A stretch of 12,550 bases of DNA from Deltaproteobacteria bacterium. GTDB lineage: Bacteria; Desulfobacterota; B13-G15. Positions 286 through 12,550 of the stretch are shown piece after piece. Each line of letters begins with the position of its first letter. Within the stretch, counting starts at the first letter, position 1. Under the pieces are notes generated by a model. That model saw only the letters and a program-made list of their open reading frames with translations, had not been told where the DNA came from and ran no database searches. The translations under genes were made by a program, and so were the position numbers. The stretch spans positions 1-12,550 of the forward strand of contig QMLK01000009.1 in the NCBI GenBank assembly GCA_003646705.1. The letters run 5' to 3'.

Positions 286-2102
286 AGGAGCCAACCGAGC
301 TCCTTTTCCATCAAGCTGCGGAGCCGTTCTTGGAGGACCAACCTCTTCAGGGACCAGGGCAGATCCCCATAAGGCCGCCTCTCTGGGGGATGATGTTTCA
401 GGACCCTGTAGAGGACGTAGCTCCCCCTGACCTCCAGGACCGGACTCACCTCTCCGTCCGCCATGCCCCACAGGAGGGGGGCCAGCTCCGATCCCTTCCT
501 AAGGAAGAGGGTCTCCCTCCTCAGGCCGTTGAGCCCCTTGGCCACCCTGTGGAAGCCCTCCCCCGCCTCGATCCTCCTCCGGGCCTCCAGGAGCCTGTAG
601 AAGGCCTCCTTGCGACTGGAGGGGCAGTCCCGGGGGTGGACGTAGAGGGAGAGGGCTTCAAGCTCGACCCTCGGCGGTATGAGGACCTCTTCGTCCTCGG
701 AGGGAAGGGCCTTGGGGTAGAGCTCCCGGGTGATGTAATGGAAGAGCGGTTCAAGTCTGCGGAGCCTTTCCTCAAGGGCCCGCTTCCTCCTCTTGAACTC
801 CCCCAGGAGGAAGGACTGCTTTCGGAGGAGGCAGAGGAAGGGATCGGGGCTCTCGTGCCCCCTCTCTCCCCCTCCTCTCCCTCTGGGCCAATCTGCCCTT
901 CGCCTGTGGACCTCCCTTCCCAAGAAGCTGAGGTAGTCCGGGCGCTGGTCCTTCATCCCCTGATAGGAGAAGTAGGAGAACCCCTGGACCCCCAGCCGCC
1001 TCAGCCGTCTCACCTCTTGGGCCACCACTTGGGGGGGCTTCCGCCAGGCCCCAAGGCCGGCGAAGACCATCCTCCCCTGGGCCCTCTCCCGGGCGGCGCG
1101 GAGTTGGGCCTCCACTCGACAGAGGTCACCCCCATAGGCCATGGGGACCACCAAGTCGAGGTAGCCCGCCTCAAGCCACCGGCCCCAATCCTGTCCTCGC
1201 TCGAAGTAAGCCCTGTCCGGATCGGGCAGCACCGCCGCCGAGAGGATGGCCCCGGGCCTCTTGGCCTTGAGGAGCCTCGAGGCCTCGGCCACCAACCGGG
1301 TGACGTGGTAGCTCCTCTCCTCGGCCCAGAGGGACTGATAGTAGTAGTTCCAGAGGGTCAGAAGGGGCAGATCCTCCCTCAGCAGGATCCAAGGGTTGGG
1401 CTTCCTCGACAGGGGATCTAAGCACCGGGGGTCCACCCCCCAGCGCCCTTTGAAGGCCTCAAGGGCCCGGGGATTGAAGCCCCACTTCGGGCCTGGATAG
1501 CGGACGAAGTCCAGATGGACCCCATCCACCGGATACCGCTGCAGCACCTCCTCCAAGACCCTCAAGAAGTAGTCCTTAACTTCAGGATTTGCAGGGTCGA
1601 GGAATAGGCCCTCGATGGGGTCCTGCCTGCGTTCATCAGGGGAATAGTCCAGTAGGCTGCGCCCCTCCTCGTCCAAGATCAACCAGTCCGGGTGGAGGTT
1701 CACCACGTGATGGGGCGAGGATGGAAAGGGGGGTGGATAGGGCCAGACGTAATAGACGTTGAGCCAGGCATGGACCTGAAGCCCCAATCCTCGAGCCCTC
1801 TGCAAGAGGTACCCCAAAGGGTCGAAGTCCTCGGGGCTCTGCTGTAGGACCTCCGCGCGGGGTACGAAGGCGGAGTTCCAGTAGGCGTCGGCCCTGCCGT
1901 ATACCTGGGCGAAGAGGGCGTTCAGATGGCCCTCCTTGGCCTCCTGCACCACGCGGTCTATGCTCTCGGGGGAGGCGAGGCGAAAACGCACCACCCAAAG
2001 GGCCCTGCCCTCCCGCAGGGTACAGGCCAGGAGCGCCGAGGCCACCAGAAGGGTGAGGAACTTCCCTCTGGCCTTCCAGGGTGCTAAAGGGCCCGGTACC
2101 AT
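255..2102 (-). CDS. Exported GHL10 (DUF187, DigH-like) glycosyl hydrolase fused to a parvulin-like PPIase domain
   Basis: The protein has 615 residues. Residues 11-28 form a signal sequence with basic residues before the hydrophobic core FLTLLVASALLAC. The Cys at 27 could be a lipobox (LLAC), so it may be a lipoprotein. Residues about 35-395 are a GHL10 TIM-barrel: WVVRF start, HAWLNVYYVW (111-120), DGVHLDFVRYP (193-203) with a candidate catalytic Asp198, VVPMAYGGD (318-326) and FAGLGAW (347-353). E. coli DigH (YddW) of this family cleaves denuded septal peptidoglycan glycans. A charged, partly coiled-coil linker follows (about 400-475). Residues about 480-570 resemble a parvulin/SurA-type rotamase: IEAGEGFHRVAK, a GSELAPLLWGMADGEVSPV stretch like the usual 'l.p.f..a.f.l..GevS.pv', then GSYVLYRVL. 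The typical GGdLGwf is not recognisable, so the domain may be inactive. The ATG lies 19 bp inside the radical SAM gene. The glycosidase part is well supported; its substrate is inferred. Confidence 0.8.
   Translation of the reverse strand: MVPGPLAPWKARGKFLTLLVASALLACTLREGRALWVVRFRLASPESIDRVVQEAKEGHLNALFAQVYGRADAYWNSAFVPRAEVLQQSPEDFDPLGYLLQRARGLGLQVHAWLNVYYVWPYPPPFPSSPHHVVNLHPDWLILDEEGRSLLDYSPDERRQDPIEGLFLDPANPEVKDYFLRVLEEVLQRYPVDGVHLDFVRYPGPKWGFNPRALEAFKGRWGVDPRCLDPLSRKPNPWILLREDLPLLTLWNYYYQSLWAEERSYHVTRLVAEASRLLKAKRPGAILSAAVLPDPDRAYFERGQDWGRWLEAGYLDLVVPMAYGGDLCRVEAQLRAARERAQGRMVFAGLGAWRKPPQVVAQEVRRLRRLGVQGFSYFSYQGMKDQRPDYLSFLGREVHRRRADWPRGRGGGERGHESPDPFLCLLRKQSFLLGEFKRRKRALEERLRRLEPLFHYITRELYPKALPSEDEEVLIPPRVELEALSLYVHPRDCPSSRKEAFYRLLEARRRIEAGEGFHRVAKGLNGLRRETLFLRKGSELAPLLWGMADGEVSPVLEVRGSYVLYRVLKHHPPERRPYGDLPWSLKRLVLQERLRSLMEKELGWLLQSSAGSQPR
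285..307 (+). terminator. Putative intrinsic terminator of the LysR-family gene
   Basis: A perfect 7-bp stem, AAGGAGC (285-291) and GCTCCTT (299-305), encloses a 7-nt loop. Its last bases run into TTTT (304-307). It begins at the last base of the regulator's stop codon. The stem is short, only four of its seven pairs are G-C, and the U-tract is short, so it may be weak. Read on the minus strand there is no T-run, so it would serve only the regulator. It lies inside the 3' coding end of the opposing hydrolase gene. Confidence 0.45.
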
Positions 2103-2959
2103 TCAGGCCTGAGGAGTCCGGGGTCCCTCCTGCGGAGGACCGCTTCGATGGTTCTCAAGGCCTCTTCCTTCTCCTCGGGCATCTTGACCTTGAGGGGCAG
2201 GTAGTTAGAGGCGTGGTTGGAGGTGAAGAGGCCCTCCATCTCCGTGTGGGCGAGCATGAGGCCGAGCTCCTCCAACAGCTCAAAGGGGGAGGGCATCTCG
2301 AACTCACCCCTGAGGTACTCCTGGTACAGGGGAGTGCCCGGTACCAGCATGAGGGTGAGGGCCCCCACGTAGTCAGGGGCCATCTCCGTGAGGATGCGAC
2401 CTGTGGCTACGGCGTGTTCCCGGCTGCGGTCCCTGCCGCCTATGCCCAGGAGCACCGTCACCGAGAGCTTTATGCCCGCCTCCTTCACCCGGCGGCCCGC
2501 CTCCACCAGCTTCTCATAGGTGGTCCCCTTCTTCACCCTGTCCAACACCACCTGATCGCCCGACTCCACCCCTAAGTAGACGATGCCGAGCTTCCTCCTC
2601 CGCAACTCCTTCAGCTCCTCGAGGTCCTTCCGCAGGACCCCCTTGGCGTTGGCGTAGATCCCCACACGCTCAAGGCGGGGGAGCTTCTCCTGGAGGTAAT
2701 CGAGGATCTCCACCAGCAGGGACTGCTTCACTATGAGGGCGTCTCCATCGGCCAAAAAGACCCTCTTCACGTAAGGGGCCAGCTTGGGGGCCACCTCATC
2801 GATGTCGGCCTTCACCTCCTCGAAGCTGCGGATGCGGAAGCGCTTCCCCTTGTATGAGGGGCAGAAGGTACAGCGGTTGTGGGAACAACCGATGGTGATC
2901 TGCAGGATGAGGCTCGAGGCCTCACTGGGAGGTCTGTAAATGGTCCCCTCGTACCTCAT
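2084..2959 (-). CDS. Radical SAM protein (COG1032-like, CX4CX2C type)
   Basis: The 291-residue protein has an N-terminal cluster motif GCSHNRCTFC with Cys25, Cys30 and Cys33, expected to hold a [4Fe-4S] cluster that cleaves S-adenosylmethionine. The first spacing is four residues rather than the usual three; from memory this is normal for this subfamily. Other radical SAM core features are VFLADGDALI, GIYANAKG, YLGVESGD, KLSVTVLLGIGG and LTLMLVPGTPLY. There is no B12-binding or TRAM domain, and the protein is close to a bare core. The substrate is unknown. Members are usually annotated only as 'radical SAM protein' or HemN-like. It is cytoplasmic. The start ATG lies inside ftsB (38-bp overlap) with a strong GGAGGAGG at 2963-2970, and its end overlaps the hydrolase start, so translation is probably coupled along the operon. 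Confidence 0.85.
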   Translation of the reverse strand: MRYEGTIYRPPSEASSLILQITIGCSHNRCTFCPSYKGKRFRIRSFEEVKADIDEVAPKLAPYVKRVFLADGDALIVKQSLLVEILDYLQEKLPRLERVGIYANAKGVLRKDLEELKELRRRKLGIVYLGVESGDQVVLDRVKKGTTYEKLVEAGRRVKEAGIKLSVTVLLGIGGRDRSREHAVATGRILTEMAPDYVGALTLMLVPGTPLYQEYLRGEFEMPSPFELLEELGLMLAHTEMEGLFTSNHASNYLPLKVKMPEEKEEALRTIEAVLRRRDPGLLRPEWYRAL

Positions 2960-3242
2960 GGTCCTCCTCCACGATTATGAAGAGGATCTCTCCCGGCTTG
3001 ACCATGCCCAGCTCCCGTCTGGCCAACCTCTCGAGGTAAAGGGGGTCCTCCCTGATCCGTCTCACCTCGTCCTCGAGGGCCTTCCTCTCCCCTTGCAGGT
3101 GGGCGACCTCGGCCCGGAGGGCCCTCCTCTGGATCTCCAGGGCCAGGAGCTTGGCCAGCCCCTTTTGGCCGAAGAGGGCGGAGCCCCAAACCAGCAAGGC
3201 CACCATCAGGACGGCCCATGTGATGAGACGCCACCCCTTCAT
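2922..3242 (-). CDS. ftsB: FtsB/DivIC-family cell division protein
   Basis: From the ATG at 3242 the protein has 106 residues, close to E. coli FtsB (about 103). It has a short cytoplasmic start, one membrane segment (about 6-24), a periplasmic coiled coil (about 30-63), and the family signature DPLYLERLARRELGMVKPGE (67-86). FtsB-type proteins sit in the divisome with FtsL and FtsQ and help activate septal peptidoglycan synthesis. The frame stays open 26 codons further upstream, but I chose the internal ATG: it gives the ATGA overlap with the tonB-like gene, the expected membrane topology and the usual length, and GGTGAGGT lies upstream. The C-terminal tail (VEEDHEV...) is acidic and also encodes the ribosome binding site of the next gene. 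Finding ftsB beside Ton/Tol-type genes is unusual; in many genomes it is near eno or ispD. Confidence 0.88.
   Translation of the reverse strand: MKGWRLITWAVLMVALLVWGSALFGQKGLAKLLALEIQRRALRAEVAHLQGERKALEDEVRRIREDPLYLERLARRELGMVKPGEILFIIVEEDHEVRGDHLQTSQ
2963..2970 (-). promoter_or_regulatory. Shine-Dalgarno site for the radical SAM gene, embedded in ftsB
   Basis: GGAGGAGG is encoded by Val-Glu-Glu-Asp codons near the ftsB 3' end and stands about 3-6 nt before the ATG at 2959. It fixes the radical SAM start despite the 38-bp overlap with ftsB. Confidence 0.7.
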
Positions 3243-3949
3243 CTCAGGACAGACCTCACCGAGAGGGTACCCCACATCTCCACTTGGGGGGCCTCCCGAG
3301 GCAAGGGTTCGAAGAGGCAACCCTTGATGTACTCCATCCCCGCGGCCTCAAGCCGGGCATCTCCCTTCCTCAGGGGGATTACCCGGCCCACCGTCCCGTC
3401 CGGCTTCACCCAGAACTTGAGCACCACCTCTGCCTCCACCGAGATCTTGACCTTGGGGGGCGCAGGGGCATAGAGGAGACGCCGCGACGCCACCGGTCCT
3501 TTGATCCCGATCTGCAGAGGCCTCGGCTTCTTCTTGATTATCTTCGGTTTGAGCTCCCTTTTCAAAGAGGCTATCACCGCCTCCTTGACCTGGGGCTTTG
3601 GTGGCTCCCCGGTCAGGAGGGGTCCCTTCGGGGGAGGGGGTGGCGGATGTCCCCCGAAGAGGCCCTCTACATCGAGGAGTTCCACCCCTTTGGGCTCCGC
3701 AGCGGGCAGCTCTAGGGGGAAGTCCTTGGTGAATCCCTTCCAGATCTGTTCCGTTATCTCCTCCATCACGGGATGGCCTGCCCATCCCTCGGGGCCCTTG
3801 GTGATCAACAGATCCACCGGGGTCAGCAATGTCACAGGGATGATGCGGAACTTAGGGGTGGGCAGGAAGTCCGGCAACAGCATCACCGACAACACGTGAA
3901 GGACGAAGGATATCGACAAAAAGAGGCCCAATCGCTTGGAGAGCTCCAT
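3239..3949 (-). CDS. tonB: TonB/TolA-family energy-transducing protein
   Basis: The 236-residue protein has an N-terminal signal anchor (about 8-25) with the Ser14-x3-His18 pair that corresponds to the TonB transmembrane Ser/His motif needed for coupling to ExbB-ExbD. A Pro/Lys-rich periplasmic spacer follows, including HPPPPPPKGP (101-110) and KPKIIKKKPRP (134-144). Residues about 168-236 form a TonB C-terminal domain: VEAEVVLKFWVKPDGTVGRV, then the RLEAAGMEYIKGCLFEPLP helix-strand, ending in a WGTLSVRSVL strand. It would carry energy from the inner-membrane motor to an outer-membrane or periplasmic partner. No TonB-dependent receptor is in the window, so the partner may be the TPR protein or a Tol-like target. 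It starts 3 nt after exbD and overlaps ftsB by 4 bp. Confidence 0.88.
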   Translation of the reverse strand: MELSKRLGLFLSISFVLHVLSVMLLPDFLPTPKFRIIPVTLLTPVDLLITKGPEGWAGHPVMEEITEQIWKGFTKDFPLELPAAEPKGVELLDVEGLFGGHPPPPPPKGPLLTGEPPKPQVKEAVIASLKRELKPKIIKKKPRPLQIGIKGPVASRRLLYAPAPPKVKISVEAEVVLKFWVKPDGTVGRVIPLRKGDARLEAAGMEYIKGCLFEPLPREAPQVEMWGTLSVRSVLR

Positions 3950-3952
3950 CGA

Positions 3953-4369
3953 TCACTTCCGCCGCTTCTTGGGCCTGGTGGCGATGGCCAGCTTGCTCAG
4001 GCCGGCCGACTTGGCCAGATCCATCACCTCCACCACCTTGCCGTGCAAGGCCCTGGAGTCGGCTCGGATTATGACCATGGTCTGAGGGGCCTTCTTGGCC
4101 CTCTCCCTGAAGATCTTCTCCAGTTCCTTGAGGTTGACCCGCTTTCGGTCCACATATATCCGGTTCTTCCTGGTGATGCTCACCCTGATCTCCTTCTTCT
4201 CCCTGAAGACCCGCTCATAGGCCGCCTTGGGGAGTTCCACCTTTATCCCCGGGGTGATGACGAAGGCCGAGGAGAGCATGAAGAAGATGAGGAGCAGAAA
4301 GACCGTGTCCACCAAAGGCGTGAGGTCTATCCTGGTGTCCCCTTGGTCGTTCCTGTCGATGAACCTCAT
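3953..4369 (-). CDS. exbD: ExbD/TolR biopolymer transport protein
   Basis: The 138-residue protein has a short cytoplasmic tail (MRFIDRNDQGDTRIDLTPLV), one transmembrane helix (about 19-38) and a periplasmic domain. Asp21 in the TPLVDTVFLLLIFFML motif corresponds to the proton-carrying Asp of ExbD/TolR (Asp25 in E. coli ExbD). The periplasmic part shows the family pattern: IKVELPKA, then RVSITRKNRIYVDRKRV, VIIRADSRALHGKVVEVMD and a final IATRP strand. It forms the proton channel with ExbB/TolQ. It begins 2 nt after the exbB stop with a good GGGGGAGGA ribosome binding site located within the end of exbB. ExbD and TolR cannot be told apart reliably from sequence alone. Confidence 0.92.
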   Translation of the reverse strand: MRFIDRNDQGDTRIDLTPLVDTVFLLLIFFMLSSAFVITPGIKVELPKAAYERVFREKKEIRVSITRKNRIYVDRKRVNLKELEKIFRERAKKAPQTMVIIRADSRALHGKVVEVMDLAKSAGLSKLAIATRPKKRRK

Positions 4370-4371
4370 CT

Positions 4372-4977
4372 CTATTCCTCCCCCTTCAGGAGGTCGAGCA
4401 GCCTCAAGGCCACCTCCTCCATCTCCAAGGTGAGGGAGTGGACGCGGTTTCGGAGGTAGCGGTGCATGACGAAGGAGGGGATGGCCACTATGAGGCCAGC
4501 AGCGGTGGTGAGCAACGCCTCGGATATTCCCCCAGCGAGGGCCCCGGGCTCGGCCACCCCTTGGAGCGCTATCACGTTGAAGCTCTTTATCATCCCCGAC
4601 ACGGTGCCGAGGAGCCCCAGCAAGGGGGCCACCCCCGCGATGGTCCCCACCACGTTGATGTATCTCTCCATGTTGGCCACCTCACGTCTGCCCACCTCCT
4701 CCATCCGTTCCTTTATGGCATCGCGCCTCTTGCCGTAGCTGGACAGGCCGGCGTACAGCACGTGGGAGATGGAGGCGTCGGTCCTCTTGCAGAGGGCCAT
4801 GGCCTCGGCCAACTTGCCCTTGGCCACCAAGTCGATGACCTCCATGAGAAAGCCGCGGGGGATCACCTTCCCCCTCCTCAAGGCCCAGAGGCGCTCCAGA
4901 AAGATCCCCAGGGCGACGATGGAACAGAAAGCAATGGGGTACATCAGCACTCCGCCCTTGAGAAACAGTTCATACAT
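4372..4977 (-). CDS. exbB: ExbB/TolQ/MotA-family proton channel protein
   Basis: The 201-residue protein has three predicted membrane helices at about 13-33, 108-130 and 152-174. The motor signature is present: GVAPLLGLLGTVSGMIKSF (115-133) in helix 2, with Thr125, and ISEALLTTAAGLIVAIPS (151-168) in helix 3, with Thr157/158 where the channel-lining Thr is found. It should form the pentameric ring that surrounds the ExbD dimer and uses the proton motive force to drive the TonB-like protein. Its length is closer to TolQ and short ExbB than to long ExbB variants. The ATG follows a strong GAGGAGGGG ribosome binding site. A 35-nt gap separates it from the TPR gene, with no terminator seen. Confidence 0.93.
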   Translation of the reverse strand: MYELFLKGGVLMYPIAFCSIVALGIFLERLWALRRGKVIPRGFLMEVIDLVAKGKLAEAMALCKRTDASISHVLYAGLSSYGKRRDAIKERMEEVGRREVANMERYINVVGTIAGVAPLLGLLGTVSGMIKSFNVIALQGVAEPGALAGGISEALLTTAAGLIVAIPSFVMHRYLRNRVHSLTLEMEEVALRLLDLLKGEE

Positions 4978-8015: not shown

Positions 8016-8043
8016 CTTATCAAAAAGGGGTTTTTTGTGTCAA
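8016..8043 (-). promoter_or_regulatory. Sigma-70-like promoter for the TPR-exbB-exbD-tonB-ftsB operon
   Basis: On the minus strand TTGACA (8043-8038) matches the -35 consensus 6/6. A 16-bp spacer leads to GATAAG (8021-8016), which matches TATAAT at 4/6. A start site near 8008-8010 would leave a leader of about 35 nt before the GTG at 7973. The stop codon TGA of the solute-binding protein gene (8042-8040) lies inside the -35 box. The spacer holds an AT-rich dyad, CAAAAA (8021-8026) and TTTTTG (8032-8037) around GGGGT on the plus strand, which could be an operator or simply a bendable tract. Confidence 0.6.
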
Positions 8044-9632
8044 CGAAGGTACCTCTGGAGGTGCTTCGGCACCCACCAGCGGATGAAGTTGTAGGTGATC
8101 CCCGCCGGGGCCGGTTCTATCCCCCGGAAGCGAGCATGGATCACCGGCAGGGCGTAAGGGACGTAGAGGAAGGTGTAGGGCTGGTCCTCGGCCAGGATCT
8201 CCTGCAAGCGGAAGTAGAGCCTCCGACGCTTGGAGCGATCGAAGGTCCTCCTGGCCTCCACCAAGATCTCGTCCACCTCGGGGTTCCGGTAGGAGATGAA
8301 GTTGAGCTCCTTGGGGCCGGTCTTGGAGGAGTGCCAGATGTCGAACTGATCCGGGTCCACCCCCGTGGACCAGCCGAGGATCACGGCCTCGAAGCGCTTC
8401 TTGTCGATGTATTCGTTGATGAAGGAGGCCCACTCCAGCACCCTGATCTTCATCCGGATCCCCACCTGCTTCAAACGCCACTGGATGATTTCAGCGGTCT
8501 TGAGCCTCGAGGTGTTTCCCCAGTTGAGCAGCACCGTGAACTGGAAGGGCTGGCTGTCTTTGTCCAGGATGCCGTCCCCGTCGACATCGCGCCAGCCGGC
8601 CTCCTCGAGCAGCTGCCGGGCCCTTTTCGGATCATAGGGGTAGCGCTTCACATGGGGGTTGTAATACCAGGTGCCGGGCTTATAGGGCCCCGTGGCCACC
8701 ACACCCAGGCCGAAGAGCACGACCTTGACGATCTCCTCCTTGTCGATGGCGTAGCTCAAGGCCTGCCTCACCCGCTTGTCCCTGAAGAAGGGGTGGCGGA
8801 GGTTGTAACCGAGGTAGGTGTAGGCGAAGGGCAGATACTTGTACTTGCGGAACTCCCGCTGGAAGTCAGGGCTTGAGGTCTGACGGGTGTACTGAAGGGG
8901 TGTAAGGGTCATCCAATCGATGCTGCCCGCCTTCAGTTCCAAGAACATGGTGGCGGGGTCGGGCACGATCCTGTAGATGAAGCGGTCTATGTAGGGCCTG
9001 CCCTCGAAGTAGTCGGGGTTGGCCTCGAGGACGATCTTCTCACCGGTCTTCCACTCCTTGAACCTGTAAGGGCCCGTCCCGATGGGACGCCTCACCAAGG
9101 GGCTCTTGGTGAGGTCCTTGCCCTGCAGGAGGTGCTTGGGCAGCACCACCAGGTCGGTCCAGCTCGCCAGCCCAGGGGCGAAGGGCTCTCGATAGGTCAC
9201 CCGGAAGGTATAGCGGTCCAGGACCTCGGCCCGCTCCACCTCGAGGTAGTCCCCGGAGTAGGCGGTGGGGGTCTTGGGATCGGTGATGGTCTTGAAGCCG
9301 AACATCACGTCCTCGGCGGTGAACTCCACCCCGTCGTGCCACTTCACCCCTCGGCGCAAATAGAAGGTGATGGTGCGGCCGTCCGACGATATCTCCCATC
9401 GCTCTGCCAGGTCCCCCACCAGGTTGAGGTCCTTGTCGTACTTGACCAGTCCGTTGTAGATGAGGCCGCAGATCTCGTGTGATGCGCTGTCGGAGGCCAA
9501 CATGGGGATGAGGCTCGATGCATCGCCTATGGAGCCCACCACGATGGTGTCACCGTAACAGGGGGCCTCCTCTTGGGCGGTGGCGCAAAAGGGGGCGATG
9601 AGGATCAGCAGGAGGGCGAGCAGTACCATCAT
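8040..9632 (-). CDS. Extracellular solute-binding protein, family 5 (DppA/OppA/AppA-like)
   Basis: The 530-residue protein begins with a hydrophobic signal peptide (about 1-19, ATA before Gln20) that has no Lys or Arg in its n-region, which is unusual. Mature features are those of SBP_bac_5: GDTIVVGSIGDASSLIP, WEISSDGRTITFYLRRGVKW HDG, FTAEDVMFGFKTI, IGTGPYRFKEWKTGEKIVL, NPDYFEGRPYIDRFIYRI, RVRQALSYAIDKEEIV, DVDGDGILDKD and a C-terminal RRLYFRLQEILAEDQPYTFLY. The family delivers peptides, nickel or other solutes to an ABC permease, but no permease or ATPase gene is present here. The ATG overlaps the acyltransferase stop (ATGA), and ATGATG offers two adjacent starts. An in-frame TAG 8 codons upstream rules out a longer form. 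The ligand is unknown; the context suggests a possible lipid-related role. Confidence 0.88.
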   Translation of the reverse strand: MMVLLALLLILIAPFCATAQEEAPCYGDTIVVGSIGDASSLIPMLASDSASHEICGLIYNGLVKYDKDLNLVGDLAERWEISSDGRTITFYLRRGVKWHDGVEFTAEDVMFGFKTITDPKTPTAYSGDYLEVERAEVLDRYTFRVTYREPFAPGLASWTDLVVLPKHLLQGKDLTKSPLVRRPIGTGPYRFKEWKTGEKIVLEANPDYFEGRPYIDRFIYRIVPDPATMFLELKAGSIDWMTLTPLQYTRQTSSPDFQREFRKYKYLPFAYTYLGYNLRHPFFRDKRVRQALSYAIDKEEIVKVVLFGLGVVATGPYKPGTWYYNPHVKRYPYDPKRARQLLEEAGWRDVDGDGILDKDSQPFQFTVLLNWGNTSRLKTAEIIQWRLKQVGIRMKIRVLEWASFINEYIDKKRFEAVILGWSTGVDPDQFDIWHSSKTGPKELNFISYRNPEVDEILVEARRTFDRSKRRRLYFRLQEILAEDQPYTFLYVPYALPVIHARFRGIEPAPAGITYNFIRWWVPKHLQRYLR

Positions 9633-10732
9633 AGGGCTGTGCCGTAGATCCTATAGGTCTTGTACCTCCTGCCCCCCATGGCCTCGATCCCCTTCTGCAT
9701 CAGGTGGTTGTCCTCGAGGATCCAGGACATCTCCCCCCTCTTGTACCCGAGGCGGTATCCGCGCCTGAAGACCTCTACGTAGAGCAAGGTCTCTATCCCC
9801 CGACGCTGATAGGGGGGTCTCACCCCGAGCAGCAGGACCCTGAGTTCGTCGATCCTCCTCTTCCAATAGAGGGCCTTCAGCAACCCCAAAGGGCCGAGGC
9901 GGCCGTTCAGGTGTCTCAGGATCAGGTTGTAGTTGGGCAGGGCCAGGATGAAGCCCACCGCCTCCCCGTCCACCTCTGCGAAGAGGCCGAGGTCGGGGAC
10001 GAGGACCGCCTTGAGGGCCTTGGCCATGAAGACCACCTCGTCTTCGGACATGGGGACGAAGCCCCAATTCTTGGCCCAGGCCTCGTGGTAGATCCTCATA
10101 AACCGCCTTATCTCCCCCTCGACGTCCCCCTTCTCCACGGTCCTAACCCGGAGGCCGGGGGTCTTCTTGAGGGCCCAGGTGGCGATCCTCTGGATCCGCT
10201 CCGGTATGGTGCCGTCGCCTATGATCAGGTTGGCGTAGAGGTCCCTCGCCTTGTGGAGGCCGATGGCCTCCATCAGTTTCGGGTAATAAGGGGGGTTGTG
10301 GGGCATCATGATGTAGGGAGGGGTCGAGAACCCATCCACCAGCATCCCACATTCATAGTTGGTGGAGGGGTTCATGGGGCCTATCATCTCCTCCATCCCC
10401 ATCTCCCTTAAGGCCTCCTTGGCCCCCTCCATCAGGGCTCGTGCCACCTCGAGGTCGTCCATGGCCTCGAAGAAGCCGAAGTAGCCGACCTTCCTGCCGT
10501 GGTAGTCTATGAACCTGCGGTCCACGATGGCGGCCACCCTGCCCACCGCTTCTCCGTCCTTCATGGCCAGTAGAGGCAAGACGGTGGCGTGGCGGCAGAA
10601 GGGGTGTTTCCCCGTGAAGAAGGGGGCCACCTCCCTCAACAGAGGGGGGACCCAGAGGGGGTCATCCCTGTAGATCCTCCAGGGGAGCCTGAGGAAGGTC
10701 CTGAGTTGCCCCTTTCCCCTTACGGGCTTCAC
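9629..10732 (-). CDS. bcerS: GNAT-fold N-acyltransferase, bacterial ceramide synthase (bCerS)-like
   Basis: The 367-residue protein opens with FLRLPWRIYRDDPLWVPPL (13-31). It then has AVGRVAAIVDRR (62-73), the family signature GPMNPSTNYECGMLVDGF (118-135), and PHNPPYYPKLMEAIGL (144-159). The C-terminal half is a GNAT domain with AVGFILALPNYN and an acyl-CoA pyrophosphate-binding loop RPPYQRRGIETLL (305-317). This architecture and length match the family of YghO and of Caulobacter CC_1154 (bCerS), which transfers a fatty acyl group to the amine of the sphingoid base. A serine-palmitoyltransferase-like gene directly upstream and an SDR reductase beyond it support that role. The GTG start is 16 nt from the best ribosome binding site, and an in-frame AUC four codons upstream has better spacing. 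Another acyl acceptor is possible. Confidence 0.78.
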   Translation of the reverse strand: MKPVRGKGQLRTFLRLPWRIYRDDPLWVPPLLREVAPFFTGKHPFCRHATVLPLLAMKDGEAVGRVAAIVDRRFIDYHGRKVGYFGFFEAMDDLEVARALMEGAKEALREMGMEEMIGPMNPSTNYECGMLVDGFSTPPYIMMPHNPPYYPKLMEAIGLHKARDLYANLIIGDGTIPERIQRIATWALKKTPGLRVRTVEKGDVEGEIRRFMRIYHEAWAKNWGFVPMSEDEVVFMAKALKAVLVPDLGLFAEVDGEAVGFILALPNYNLILRHLNGRLGPLGLLKALYWKRRIDELRVLLLGVRPPYQRRGIETLLYVEVFRRGYRLGYKRGEMSWILEDNHLMQKGIEAMGGRRYKTYRIYGTAL

Positions 10733-10748
10733 CCTTACGGCGATGGCC

Positions 10749-10755
10749 CACCTCC
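10749..10755 (-). promoter_or_regulatory. Shine-Dalgarno site upstream of the N-acyltransferase (decides its start)
   Basis: GGAGGTG lies in the 27-nt gap after the serine-palmitoyltransferase stop. It is 16 nt from the GTG at 10732 but only 4 nt from an in-frame AUC at 10744-10742. No ATG, GTG or TTG lies in frame between the TAG at 10759-10757 and the GTG. Confidence 0.5.
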
Positions 10756-10759
10756 CCTA

Positions 10760-11941
10760 TTAGATGATGCCCAGTTCCCTTCCTGCGCGCTCGAAGGCCT
10801 CGAGCACCCGATCCAGTTGCTCGTCGGTGTGGGTGGCCATGAAGCTGGTCCTCAGCAGCTCCCTGCCGGGAGGGGTGGCTGGGGGGAGCACTGGGTTGAC
10901 GAAGACCCCGTATCGCTCCAGCAGCCCGCACATCTGGAAGGTCTTCAGCTGGTCCCCGATGATGATGGGTATGATGGGGGTGCAGCTTTCGCCCGTGTCG
11001 AACCCCAAGGCCTTGAAGCCCTCTTGCATCTTGCGGGTGTTCCTCCAGAGCCTCTCCCTGCGCTCCGGTTCCTCCATGATGACGTCCAGGGCCGCGCTGG
11101 CTGCAGCGGCCAAGGGAGGGGCGATGGCGGCCGAGAAGATCAGCGAACGGGCGAAGTGCTTGACGTAGTTGATCACCTCCTTGGGGCCCGCGATGAACCC
11201 CCCTATGGTGGCGAGGCTCTTGCTGTAGGTCCCCATGATGAGGTCCACCTCGTCCTCCACCCCGAAGTGCTCCGCGGTCCCCCTGCCCCCTTCGCCCAAG
11301 ACACCGATGCCGTGGGCGTCGTCCACCATCACCCGCGCCCCGTACCTCTTCGCCATGGCGATGATCTCCGGCAGGGGGGCGATGTCACCCTCCATGCTGA
11401 AGACCCCGTCCACGATGATCAGCTTGCCGGCCTCCTCGGGGACCTCCTTGAGGACCCGCTCCAGGTCCTGGGGGTCGTTGTGCTTGAAGCGCCTGACCTG
11501 CGTCATGGCCAGGCGGCAGCCGTCGATGATGGAGGCGTGGTCGTACTTGTCCAAGATGGCCACATCCCTCCTCCCCAGCAGGGCCGAGATGGTCCCGAGG
11601 TTCGTCTGGTAACCCGTGGCGAAGACCAAGGCCGCCTCCTTCCGGAAGAACCGGGCCAGCTTCTCCTCCAATTCCTCGATGATGTCGAGGTTCCCGTTGA
11701 GGAAGCGCGAACCGGCACAGCCCGTCCCGTACCTCTCTATGGCCGCCTTGGCCGCTTCCTTCACCTTGGGATGGTCGGTGAGGCCGAGGTAGTTGTTGGA
11801 GCCGGCCATGATGAGCTTACGGCCGTTCACCATCACCTCCGTCCCCTGGGCCGACTCTATCCGTCGGAAGAGGAAGTAGACTCCAGCCTCCTTCGCCTCC
11901 TCCACCTTCTTGAAGTTGAAACATCTATCGAAGATGTCCAT
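10760..11941 (-). CDS. spt: Serine palmitoyltransferase-like alpha-oxoamine synthase (PLP enzyme)
   Basis: The 393-residue protein is a fold-type I PLP enzyme. It has GSNNYLGL (47-54), [13 protein letters not shown] (71-83), [13 protein letters not shown] (131-143) with His135 to stack on [19 protein letters not shown] (206-221) with Asp207 and His210, and the Schiff-base Lys241 in [13 protein letters not shown] (237-249). The C-terminal [11 protein letters not shown] (362-372) supplies the conserved Arg364. The SKS-A-IGG context around the lysine and the ARSLIFSAA stretch are typical of bacterial serine palmitoyltransferases, not of BioF (GKGFG) or Kbl (GKALGG). It would condense L-serine with palmitoyl-CoA or acyl-ACP to give 3-ketosphinganine. 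Its neighbours support this. A strong AGGAGGGAGAGG ribosome binding site occupies the 12-nt gap after the upstream gene. Another alpha-oxoamine synthase activity remains possible. Confidence 0.82.
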
Positions 11942-11953
11942 CCTCTCCCTCCT

Positions 11954-12550
11954 CTACAGCCATCCTGCCTTTAGGTACCAGGCGAGGGTGAGTTCGAGGC
12001 CCTCCCTGAGGCTCCAGCGGGGACTGAAGCCCAGCACCTCTCTGGCCTTGGAGATATCGCAAAGCCACGCCTCCTGGAGGGCCTCAGCGCACTTGCTGGG
12101 GGTGAAGGCCACCGCCCTTCCCCTCAACCTGCCGAAGAGCTCTCCCCCGTAGGCGCACAGCCAAGCCACGGGGGCCGGAATTCTAATCCTCATGTATCTT
12201 ATGTCAAGGAGAGAAGCTACCATATCGATGAGCGATTGCAAAGGGTGTTTCACGCCGTCGGAGATGAAGAAGACCTCCCCCGAGGGGTAGTCGGCATCGG
12301 CCGCCAAGATCAAGGCCTCCACCAGGTCCTGTACGAAGCAGAGGCTGAGCCACTGCTCCCTCCGGAGCATGGGGACAAACCGCCCCTTCACCAACTTGAA
12401 GAGCTGCAGCATGTAGTCGTCCCTGGGGCCGTAGACGGCCGCAGCCCGGAGGATCCCCACCTGGAGGCTATCTCGATGCCCGAGGGCCACCCCTTCGGCC
12501 TCCAGCTTGCTCCTGCCGTAGGGGGAGACGGGCCTTGGGGGGTCCTCCTC
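11954..12550 (-). CDS. cerR: NAD-dependent epimerase/reductase (extended SDR), candidate ceramide reductase, N-terminus outside window
   Basis: About 198 C-terminal residues are visible, and the frame is open to the window edge. Twenty residues precede the GTG at 12490, which is therefore not the true start. They include the catalytic YxxxK motif in SPYGRSKLEAE (Tyr codon 12518-12520), the hallmark of extended short-chain dehydrogenases. Downstream are RAAAVYGPRDD (Ala replaces the usual Pro of RPxxVYGP), LCFVQDLVEALILAA, GEVFFISDG and a terminal PRWSLREGLELTLAWYLKAGWL-type ending. The Rossmann glycine motif lies outside the window. In Caulobacter an enzyme of this fold (CerR) reduces the 3-keto group in ceramide synthesis. 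That role is inferred here from its position 12 nt upstream of the serine-palmitoyltransferase-like gene. A nucleotide-sugar or sterol-type SDR is the alternative. Confidence 0.75.
   Translation of the reverse strand, partial: EEDPPRPVSPYGRSKLEAEGVALGHRDSLQVGILRAAAVYGPRDDYMLQLFKLVKGRFVPMLRREQWLSLCFVQDLVEALILAADADYPSGEVFFISDGVKHPLQSLIDMVASLLDIRYMRIRIPAPVAWLCAYGGELFGRLRGRAVAFTPSKCAEALQEAWLCDISKAREVLGFSPRWSLREGLELTLAWYLKAGWL

What the first reader, a model, noticed from the sequence alone, without database searches (positions are those of the whole stretch)
9629..12550. Probable bacterial ceramide/sphingolipid synthesis operon (SDR reductase, Spt-like, bCerS-like)
Three adjacent same-strand genes match, in family, motif and length, the three core enzymes described for Caulobacter ceramide synthesis: serine palmitoyltransferase, a GNAT-type N-acyltransferase (bCerS) and an extended-SDR reductase (CerR). 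The Spt-like enzyme has the SKSLATIGG lysine context expected for Spt, and the acyltransferase has the GPMNPSTN signature of its family. Here they form one tight cluster (12- and 27-nt gaps), whereas in Caulobacter bcerS is some genes away. No ACP or acyl-ACP synthetase is in the window; these may lie upstream. If true, this organism makes ceramides, perhaps replacing or modifying lipid A.
Basis: partly seen in the sequence, partly recalled or inferred. Interest (0 to 1): 0.75.

Follow-up and report, generated by a model that had tools for sequence, protein, structure and literature searches.

The report
Bacterial ceramide synthesis gene cluster
Three neighbouring genes in an uncultured deltaproteobacterium-like microbe very probably make the backbone of sphingolipids; this gene set is already known from many bacteria, so it is an ordinary but solid new example.

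Summary
Observation confirmed. On the minus strand lie an SDR gene (C-terminal 198 aa; the contig ends at 12550), an alpha-oxoamine synthase (393 aa) and a tandem-GNAT acyltransferase (367 aa), with 12- and 27-nt gaps. In an 88-row tree the PLP enzyme falls in a 76-row clade (100/97) with a solved SPT (3a2b) and Sphingomonas SPT, apart from Kbl, BioF, HemA and five paralogues of its relatives. The trio recurs in 9 of 9 same-family/same-order genomes; of 80 loci with related GNATs, 62 carry an SPT, 51 SPT plus SDR. The GNAT is homologous (35%) to E. coli YghO and the Sphingomonas 'aca', published counterparts of Caulobacter CC_1154. The ceramide reading is supported (0.85), but it fits the Bacteroidetes/delta type rather than the Caulobacter model: no AcpR/AasR found nearby, the SDR is not shown to be a CerR orthologue, and lpxC is present, so lipid A replacement is not supported. 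Published work already reports Spt-like proteins, often beside bCerS and CerR homologues, in 38 phyla (PMC11334938). Verdict: new member of a known kind. One fresh lead: a PAP2/AUR1-like gene beside the cluster in relatives, a possible ceramide head-group transferase.

The parts
11954..12550 (-). Extended SDR, C-terminal 198 aa (probable 3-oxo-ceramide / 3-oxo-sphinganine reductase), cut by the contig end
   Evidence: PF01370; YxxxK (YGRSK) in the fragment; 56% identical to the full-length SDR of G001; in a 40-row clade of cluster SDRs (97/92)
12506..12520 (-). YGRSK: YxxxK motif of the SDR
   Evidence: Read from the translation; motif meaning recalled
10760..11941 (-). Serine-palmitoyltransferase-like alpha-oxoamine synthase, 393 aa
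   Evidence: NF047600 560 bits, below its cut-off of 640; 3a2b 438 bits; tree clade 100/97; catalytic residues
11219..11221 (-). K241, PLP lysine in [12 protein letters not shown]
   Evidence: Aligned with K265 of the Sphingomonas SPT; lysine in 76 of 76 clade rows
9629..10732 (-). Tandem-GNAT N-acyltransferase, bCerS / aca / YghO family, 367 aa
   Evidence: PF00583; homologous to YghO and Sphingomonas aca; SPT in 62 of 80 related loci; AlphaFold2 model pLDDT 93.5 matches tandem GNATs
10358..10381 (-). GPMNPSTN, GNAT residues 118-125
   Evidence: Alignments A1 and A3: G118, P119, S123 and N125 invariant in the 43 rows of A3; only G118 and P119 in the 16 rows of A1
8040..9632 (-). Family-5 solute-binding protein (530 aa), probably co-transcribed with the trio; role in the pathway unknown
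   Evidence: PF00496; 4-nt overlap with the GNAT; a 74-81% identical gene downstream in 5 of 8 same-order genomes

Best explanation
The three genes form a ceramide-backbone operon. The Spt-like enzyme condenses an amino acid, most likely L-serine, with a long-chain acyl thioester (acyl-CoA or the housekeeping acyl-ACP) to a 3-oxo-sphinganine. The tandem GNAT (bCerS-like) N-acylates the amino group. The extended SDR reduces the 3-oxo group, giving dihydroceramide. Shown here: gene order and its conservation, family placement, active-site residues, predicted fold. Inferred: the reactions, their substrates, and whether acylation comes before reduction.
Against: No NCBIfam SPT cut-off is reached. 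A relatives' paralogue grouping with BioF is more similar overall (47%) than the Sphingomonas SPT (42%). R378 of the Sphingomonas enzyme is L352 here (also not R in 3a2b or the E. coli enzyme). The clade also holds a Priestia enzyme with no sphingolipid neighbours annotated. 18 of 80 GNAT loci show no SPT, some with full 7-kb flanks, and on the GNAT trees the SPT link changes 13 and 9 times. The SDR is incomplete. No lipid evidence.
Confidence: 0.85

Rival explanations
1. Same pathway, different amino acid: the Spt-like enzyme uses alanine, glycine, lysine or cysteate, so the product is a 1-deoxyceramide, another variant ceramide or a sulfonolipid rather than a serine-based ceramide.
For: PMC11334938 states that Spt can use alanine, supposes lysine, and links 1-deoxyceramides with Desulfobacterota by co-abundance (passages and section 20). 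A cysteate acyltransferase is among the solved relatives (28eh, 266 bits). R378 is not conserved.
Against: The best solved matches by far are SPTs (438 bits). No residue analysed here predicts the amino acid.
Confidence: 0.2
2. The PLP enzyme is a BioF or Kbl and the neighbourhood is a coincidence.
For: Substantial scores to glycine C-acetyltransferase (408 bits) and BioF (407 bits) models; 47% identity to a relatives' BioF-like paralogue.
Against: Tree placement, SKS lysine context, conserved linkage to GNAT and SDR; five same-order genomes hold a separate BioF-like paralogue.
Confidence: 0.03
3. The GNAT acylates something other than the long-chain base (another lipid amine or a peptide) and only shares the operon.
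For: Family members occur without an SPT in sight (18 of 80 loci; B. finegoldii and Chloroflexota plasmids). A tandem-GNAT fold alone does not tell the substrate.
Against: Nearest tree neighbours are SPT-linked (8 of 9 rows in the starred set); the genetically required Caulobacter acyltransferase has counterparts in this family (PMC9386255, passages).
Confidence: 0.08
4. The lipid replaces lipid A, so that the organism is LPS-free.
For: Sphingolipids replace LPS in sphingomonads (stated in PMC11087976, passage).
Against: LpxC is found in the MAG (residues 1-134 of 268, at a contig end) and in 9 of 9 same-family/same-order relatives; 56 of 59 genomes searched match it. LptF/LptG matches in 11 of 11 genomes, the MAG's two being fragments at contig ends.
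Confidence: 0.03

Closest known systems
Spt / bCerS / CerR ceramide pathway of Caulobacter crescentus (CC_1162, CC_1154, CC_1164)
   Same: Same three enzyme families; the GNAT belongs to one family with the published counterparts YghO and Sphingomonas aca of CC_1154
   Different: One compact SDR-SPT-GNAT cluster; no AcpR/AasR found nearby; SPT of the other bacterial subgroup; SDR only 26% (Sphingomonas) and 27% (E. coli) identical over the window fragment to the reductases there. Caulobacter sequences themselves were not compared
Spt-like clusters of anaerobic marine bacteria (Black Sea MAGs, PMC11334938)
   Same: Same criterion: Spt-like protein with CerR and bCerS homologues close by; 38 phyla, Desulfobacterota among the potential producers
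   Different: No difference of kind seen; their sequences were not compared with this one
SPT subgroup of Bacteroidetes and delta-proteobacteria (Sphingobacterium, Myxococcus; PMC9386255 passage)
   Same: Best solved match 3a2b (52.5% identity; that it is the Sphingobacterium enzyme is recalled); 56% identity to the Pyxidicoccus cluster SPT
   Different: In Myxococcus and Pyxidicoccus the order is SPT-GNAT-SDR
E. coli yghO cluster (spt, acpR, epi, aasR, yghO, lptFG)
   Same: GNAT, SPT and SDR homologues together
   Different: Carries acyl carrier protein and fatty acyl-AMP ligase genes; genes on both strands; with lptFG

Membership tests
Serine palmitoyltransferase (alpha-oxoamine synthase family) | Groups with known SPTs, not with BioF, Kbl or HemA | tested here: met
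   76-row clade 100/97; BioF, Kbl, HemA and five paralogues on the other side, 100/98; the tool warns of long branches
Serine palmitoyltransferase (alpha-oxoamine synthase family) | Catalytic residues (PLP lysine, stacking His, Asp/His pair) | tested here: met
   H135, D207, H210, K241 aligned with H159, D231, H234, K265 of the Sphingomonas SPT; roles recalled; these are shared with BioF and Kbl
Serine palmitoyltransferase (alpha-oxoamine synthase family) | Reaches the curated NCBIfam SPT cut-off | tested here: not met
   NF047600 560.1 of 640, NF047599 427.8 of 500, NF047603 370.2 of 670; these cut-offs mark narrow taxonomic subgroups, so this lowers the claim of an equivalog, not of an SPT-like enzyme
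Serine palmitoyltransferase (alpha-oxoamine synthase family) | Makes 3-oxo-sphinganine from serine | not testable with these tools
   Needs an assay
Bacterial ceramide synthase (bCerS / aca / YghO, tandem GNAT) | Full-length homology to published members and GNAT fold | tested here: met
   35% identity to YghO and to Sphingomonas aca over the whole length; tandem-GNAT model
Bacterial ceramide synthase (bCerS / aca / YghO, tandem GNAT) | Falls in one exclusive clade with YghO and aca | tested here: inconclusive
   YghO and aca sit in a separate 8-row set (97/91); the deeper order among the 60 ingroup rows is unresolved
Bacterial ceramide synthase (bCerS / aca / YghO, tandem GNAT) | Genetic link to spt | tested here: met
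   Adjacent in the window and in 9 of 9 close genomes; SPT in 62 of 80 wider loci
CerR ceramide reductase | SDR family member linked to spt | tested here: met
   PF01370; 40-row clade of cluster SDRs
CerR ceramide reductase | Orthologous to the Caulobacter/Sphingomonas/E. coli reductase | tested here: inconclusive
   Sphingomonas, E. coli and Pseudomonas reductases branch elsewhere with weak support (86/56); Caulobacter CerR not at hand
CerR ceramide reductase | Periplasmic location (as in Caulobacter) | not testable with these tools
   N-terminus not held; the G001 SDR begins with its nucleotide-binding motif and shows no obvious signal peptide by eye
Rhodobacterial five-gene ceramide set (spt, acpR, epi, aasR, aca) | Dedicated AcpR and AasR with the spt | tested here: not met
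   None in the window; no PP-binding protein within 70 kb on the SPT contigs of 8 same-order genomes; MAG: one PP-binding protein, best AasR-like match 26% identical. The MAG is incomplete and upstream of 12550 is not held

The most novel reading that the evidence does not exclude
In relatives the cluster includes a PAP2/AUR1-like membrane gene that is a ceramide head-group transferase (phosphoinositol- or similar phospho-ceramide synthase): a four-gene module shared by deltaproteobacteria-like lineages (gene on the opposite strand) and Acidobacteriota (colinear SDR-PAP2-GNAT-SPT). In the window this gene is not at its usual place, and a solute-binding protein is coupled directly to the GNAT; it might carry the lipid or a precursor through the periplasm.
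Probability: 0.3. Interest if true: 0.5.

Novelty: new member of a known kind. Interest (0 to 1): 0.3.

Why it matters
It adds an uncultured deltaproteobacterium-like family to the predicted sphingolipid makers and supports the view that a compact SPT-GNAT-SDR cluster without its own acyl carrier protein is a common layout outside the Alpha-, Beta- and Gammaproteobacteria. The PAP2 neighbour in relatives, with myo-inositol-phosphate synthase in 7 of 11 genomes searched, makes a head-group hypothesis directly testable.

Tried and rejected
Rejected: BioF/Kbl identity; lipid A replacement. Tried without result: finding the missing SDR half and upstream genes in the MAG (besides the window only weaker matches on C151 and C173); a literature search for the group RBG-13-52-11 (0 papers); identifying AcpR/AasR (generic hits only; the one AasR-like match on an SPT contig, in G009, is in a 767-aa frame 9 kb away, with similar-sized frames elsewhere in other genomes). 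The fold search listed no ceramide synthase; that absence says nothing. Corrected on the way: I first labelled Roseomonas as without SPT (still so), but in R. mucosa TT14 an oxoamine synthase (1096-2172) and the GNAT (11865-12971) lie on one plasmid about 10 kb apart, so R. gilardii was left ungrouped. In one search my ORF picker hid the SPT of G008 and G016, and the window's own SPT, behind antisense ORFs; searches place them. Two cut SPTs (L081, L155) were dropped from the tree by a 300-aa filter; two cut SDRs (L101, L150) from that by a 240-aa filter. No structure was predicted for the SPT or SDR.
Full report
What is there. The window is an entire 12,550-bp contig (C9) of a 1.38-Mb MAG in 270 contigs, 82.8% complete. 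The genes discussed are on the minus strand. Read 5' to 3' they are: SDR (11954-12550, open at the contig end), oxoamine synthase (10760-11941), GNAT (9629-10732), family-5 solute-binding protein (8040-9632), a 986-aa TPR protein, ExbB, ExbD, a weakly TonB-like protein, an ORF with weak FtsB similarity, a radical-SAM protein and a GHL10 protein. The GNAT stop and the solute-binding-protein start overlap by ATGA.

The PLP enzyme. Its best NCBIfam model is the Bacteroidetes-type SPT (NF047600, 560 bits, cut-off 640), ahead of TIGR01825 (444), NF047599 (428), glycine C-acetyltransferase (408) and BioF (407); none of the 21 models listed reaches its cut-off. Its best solved relative is SPT 3a2b (438 bits). 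An 88-row maximum-likelihood tree puts it in a 76-row clade (100/97) with 3a2b, the Sphingomonas SPT, the E. coli and Pseudomonas yghO-cluster enzymes and 60 of the 62 GNAT-linked enzymes (two cut ones were dropped by a length filter); HemA, Kbl, BioF and five paralogues of same-order genomes are on the other side (100/98), and a Methylocystis and a Bacteroides ovatus enzyme branch between. The tree tool warns of long branches, among them BioF, HemA and the Sphingomonas SPT. Catalytic residues are conserved, and the lysine context is SKS, where the Kbl, BioF, HemA and paralogue rows shown have GK[AG]. Results that go the other way: R378 of the Sphingomonas enzyme is not conserved (nor in 3a2b or the E. 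coli enzyme); the relatives' paralogue L156 is 47% identical, more than the Sphingomonas SPT at 42%; and a Priestia enzyme inside the clade, also SKS, has no sphingolipid neighbours annotated.

The SDR. Only the C-terminal part is held. In a 72-row tree it joins SDRs of other such clusters (40 rows, 97/92), apart from HpnA, GalE, RfbB and two other SDRs of the MAG; deep branches, including the positions of the Sphingomonas/E. coli/Pseudomonas reductases and of the Myxococcus and Streptomyces cluster SDRs, are weak. In Caulobacter CerR is periplasmic (PMC11087976, abstract and passages); the SDR of G001 starts directly at its nucleotide-binding motif, so a cytoplasmic location is as likely here (inference).

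Conservation and surroundings. SDR-SPT-GNAT occurs in that order in 9 of 9 same-family/same-order genomes (G001-G009, for G008). A GNAT match occurs in 27 of 59 genomes, the MAG itself included. In 7 of 8 same-order genomes a PAP2_3 gene on the opposite strand follows the GNAT; it is not at this place in the window or in G008, and G001's contig ends inside the GNAT. The MAG has two weaker PAP2_3 matches elsewhere, one of them over the cut-off (C69, 36.5 bits). PAP2-like genes are in 23 of 80 wider loci, including colinear ones in Acidobacteriota. One scores weakly against the phosphoinositol dihydroceramide synthase model (29.7 bits, cut-off 480), and another against LpxE instead (30.3 bits, cut-off 177); 26 of 27 sequences examined carry PSxH followed by HYxxD, the 27th being a match that ends there. 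Myo-inositol-phosphate synthase is in 7 of 11 genomes, the MAG included. Bacteroides PI-DHC synthase BT_1522 is described as similar to yeast AUR1 in PMC9246714 (passages). This is a lead only.

Mechanism. In the Rhodobacteria the SPT takes its acyl group from a dedicated AcpR loaded by AasR (PMC9386255, abstract and passages); the same paper puts delta-proteobacterial SPTs with those of Bacteroidetes. Here no AcpR or AasR was found near the trio in relatives, so acyl-CoA or the housekeeping acyl-ACP is the likelier donor (inference). Whether acylation or reduction comes second is disputed even for Caulobacter (PMC11087976). LpxC in the MAG and its 9 closest relatives speaks for lipid A beside the sphingolipid.

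Known work. PMC11334938 (passages and section 20; [quoted passage not shown] Desulfobacterota are named as likely producers of 1-deoxyceramides. In the rows listed by searches (25 of 30, 15 of 157 and 4 of 4 papers) I saw none on this particular group or on the PAP2 neighbour. The finding is therefore correct but of a known kind.

Organism. The window's genome is taken to be an uncultured deltaproteobacterium in the old sense (inference).

Noticed in passing
L031:5665-6585 (+), L042:7574-8470 (-), L076:8070-8951 (-): PAP2/AUR1-like membrane gene beside the GNAT in 7 of 8 same-order genomes and PAP2-like genes in 23 of 80 wider loci (colinear in Acidobacteriota); candidate ceramide head-group transferase.
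   Followed up: partly
window 8040-9632 (-): Solute-binding protein (SBP_bac_5) overlapping the GNAT by 4 nt; a 74-81% identical gene follows the cluster in 5 of 8 same-order genomes and a fragment in one more. No permease gene was found by the Pfam scan of ten window ORFs.
   Followed up: partly
window 2084-4977 (-): Radical SAM, TonB-like, ExbD and ExbB genes downstream are also kept beside the cluster in several same-order genomes.
   Followed up: no
L048:2616-4328 (-): In the closest relative (G001) the gene directly upstream of the SDR is a 570-aa ORF, open at the contig end, with a spermidine-synthase-like domain, PF01564.
   Followed up: no
L055, L057: GNATs of the YghO group in Roseomonas and Diaphorobacter plasmids stand beside LptF/LptG-family permeases, CDP-alcohol phosphatidyltransferases and nucleotidyltransferases: possibly related lipid pathways with other head groups.
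   Followed up: no
L107:6995-10363, L110:5007-8074: Two tandem-GNAT genes side by side next to the SPT; perhaps two acyltransferases for different acyl chains.
   Followed up: no
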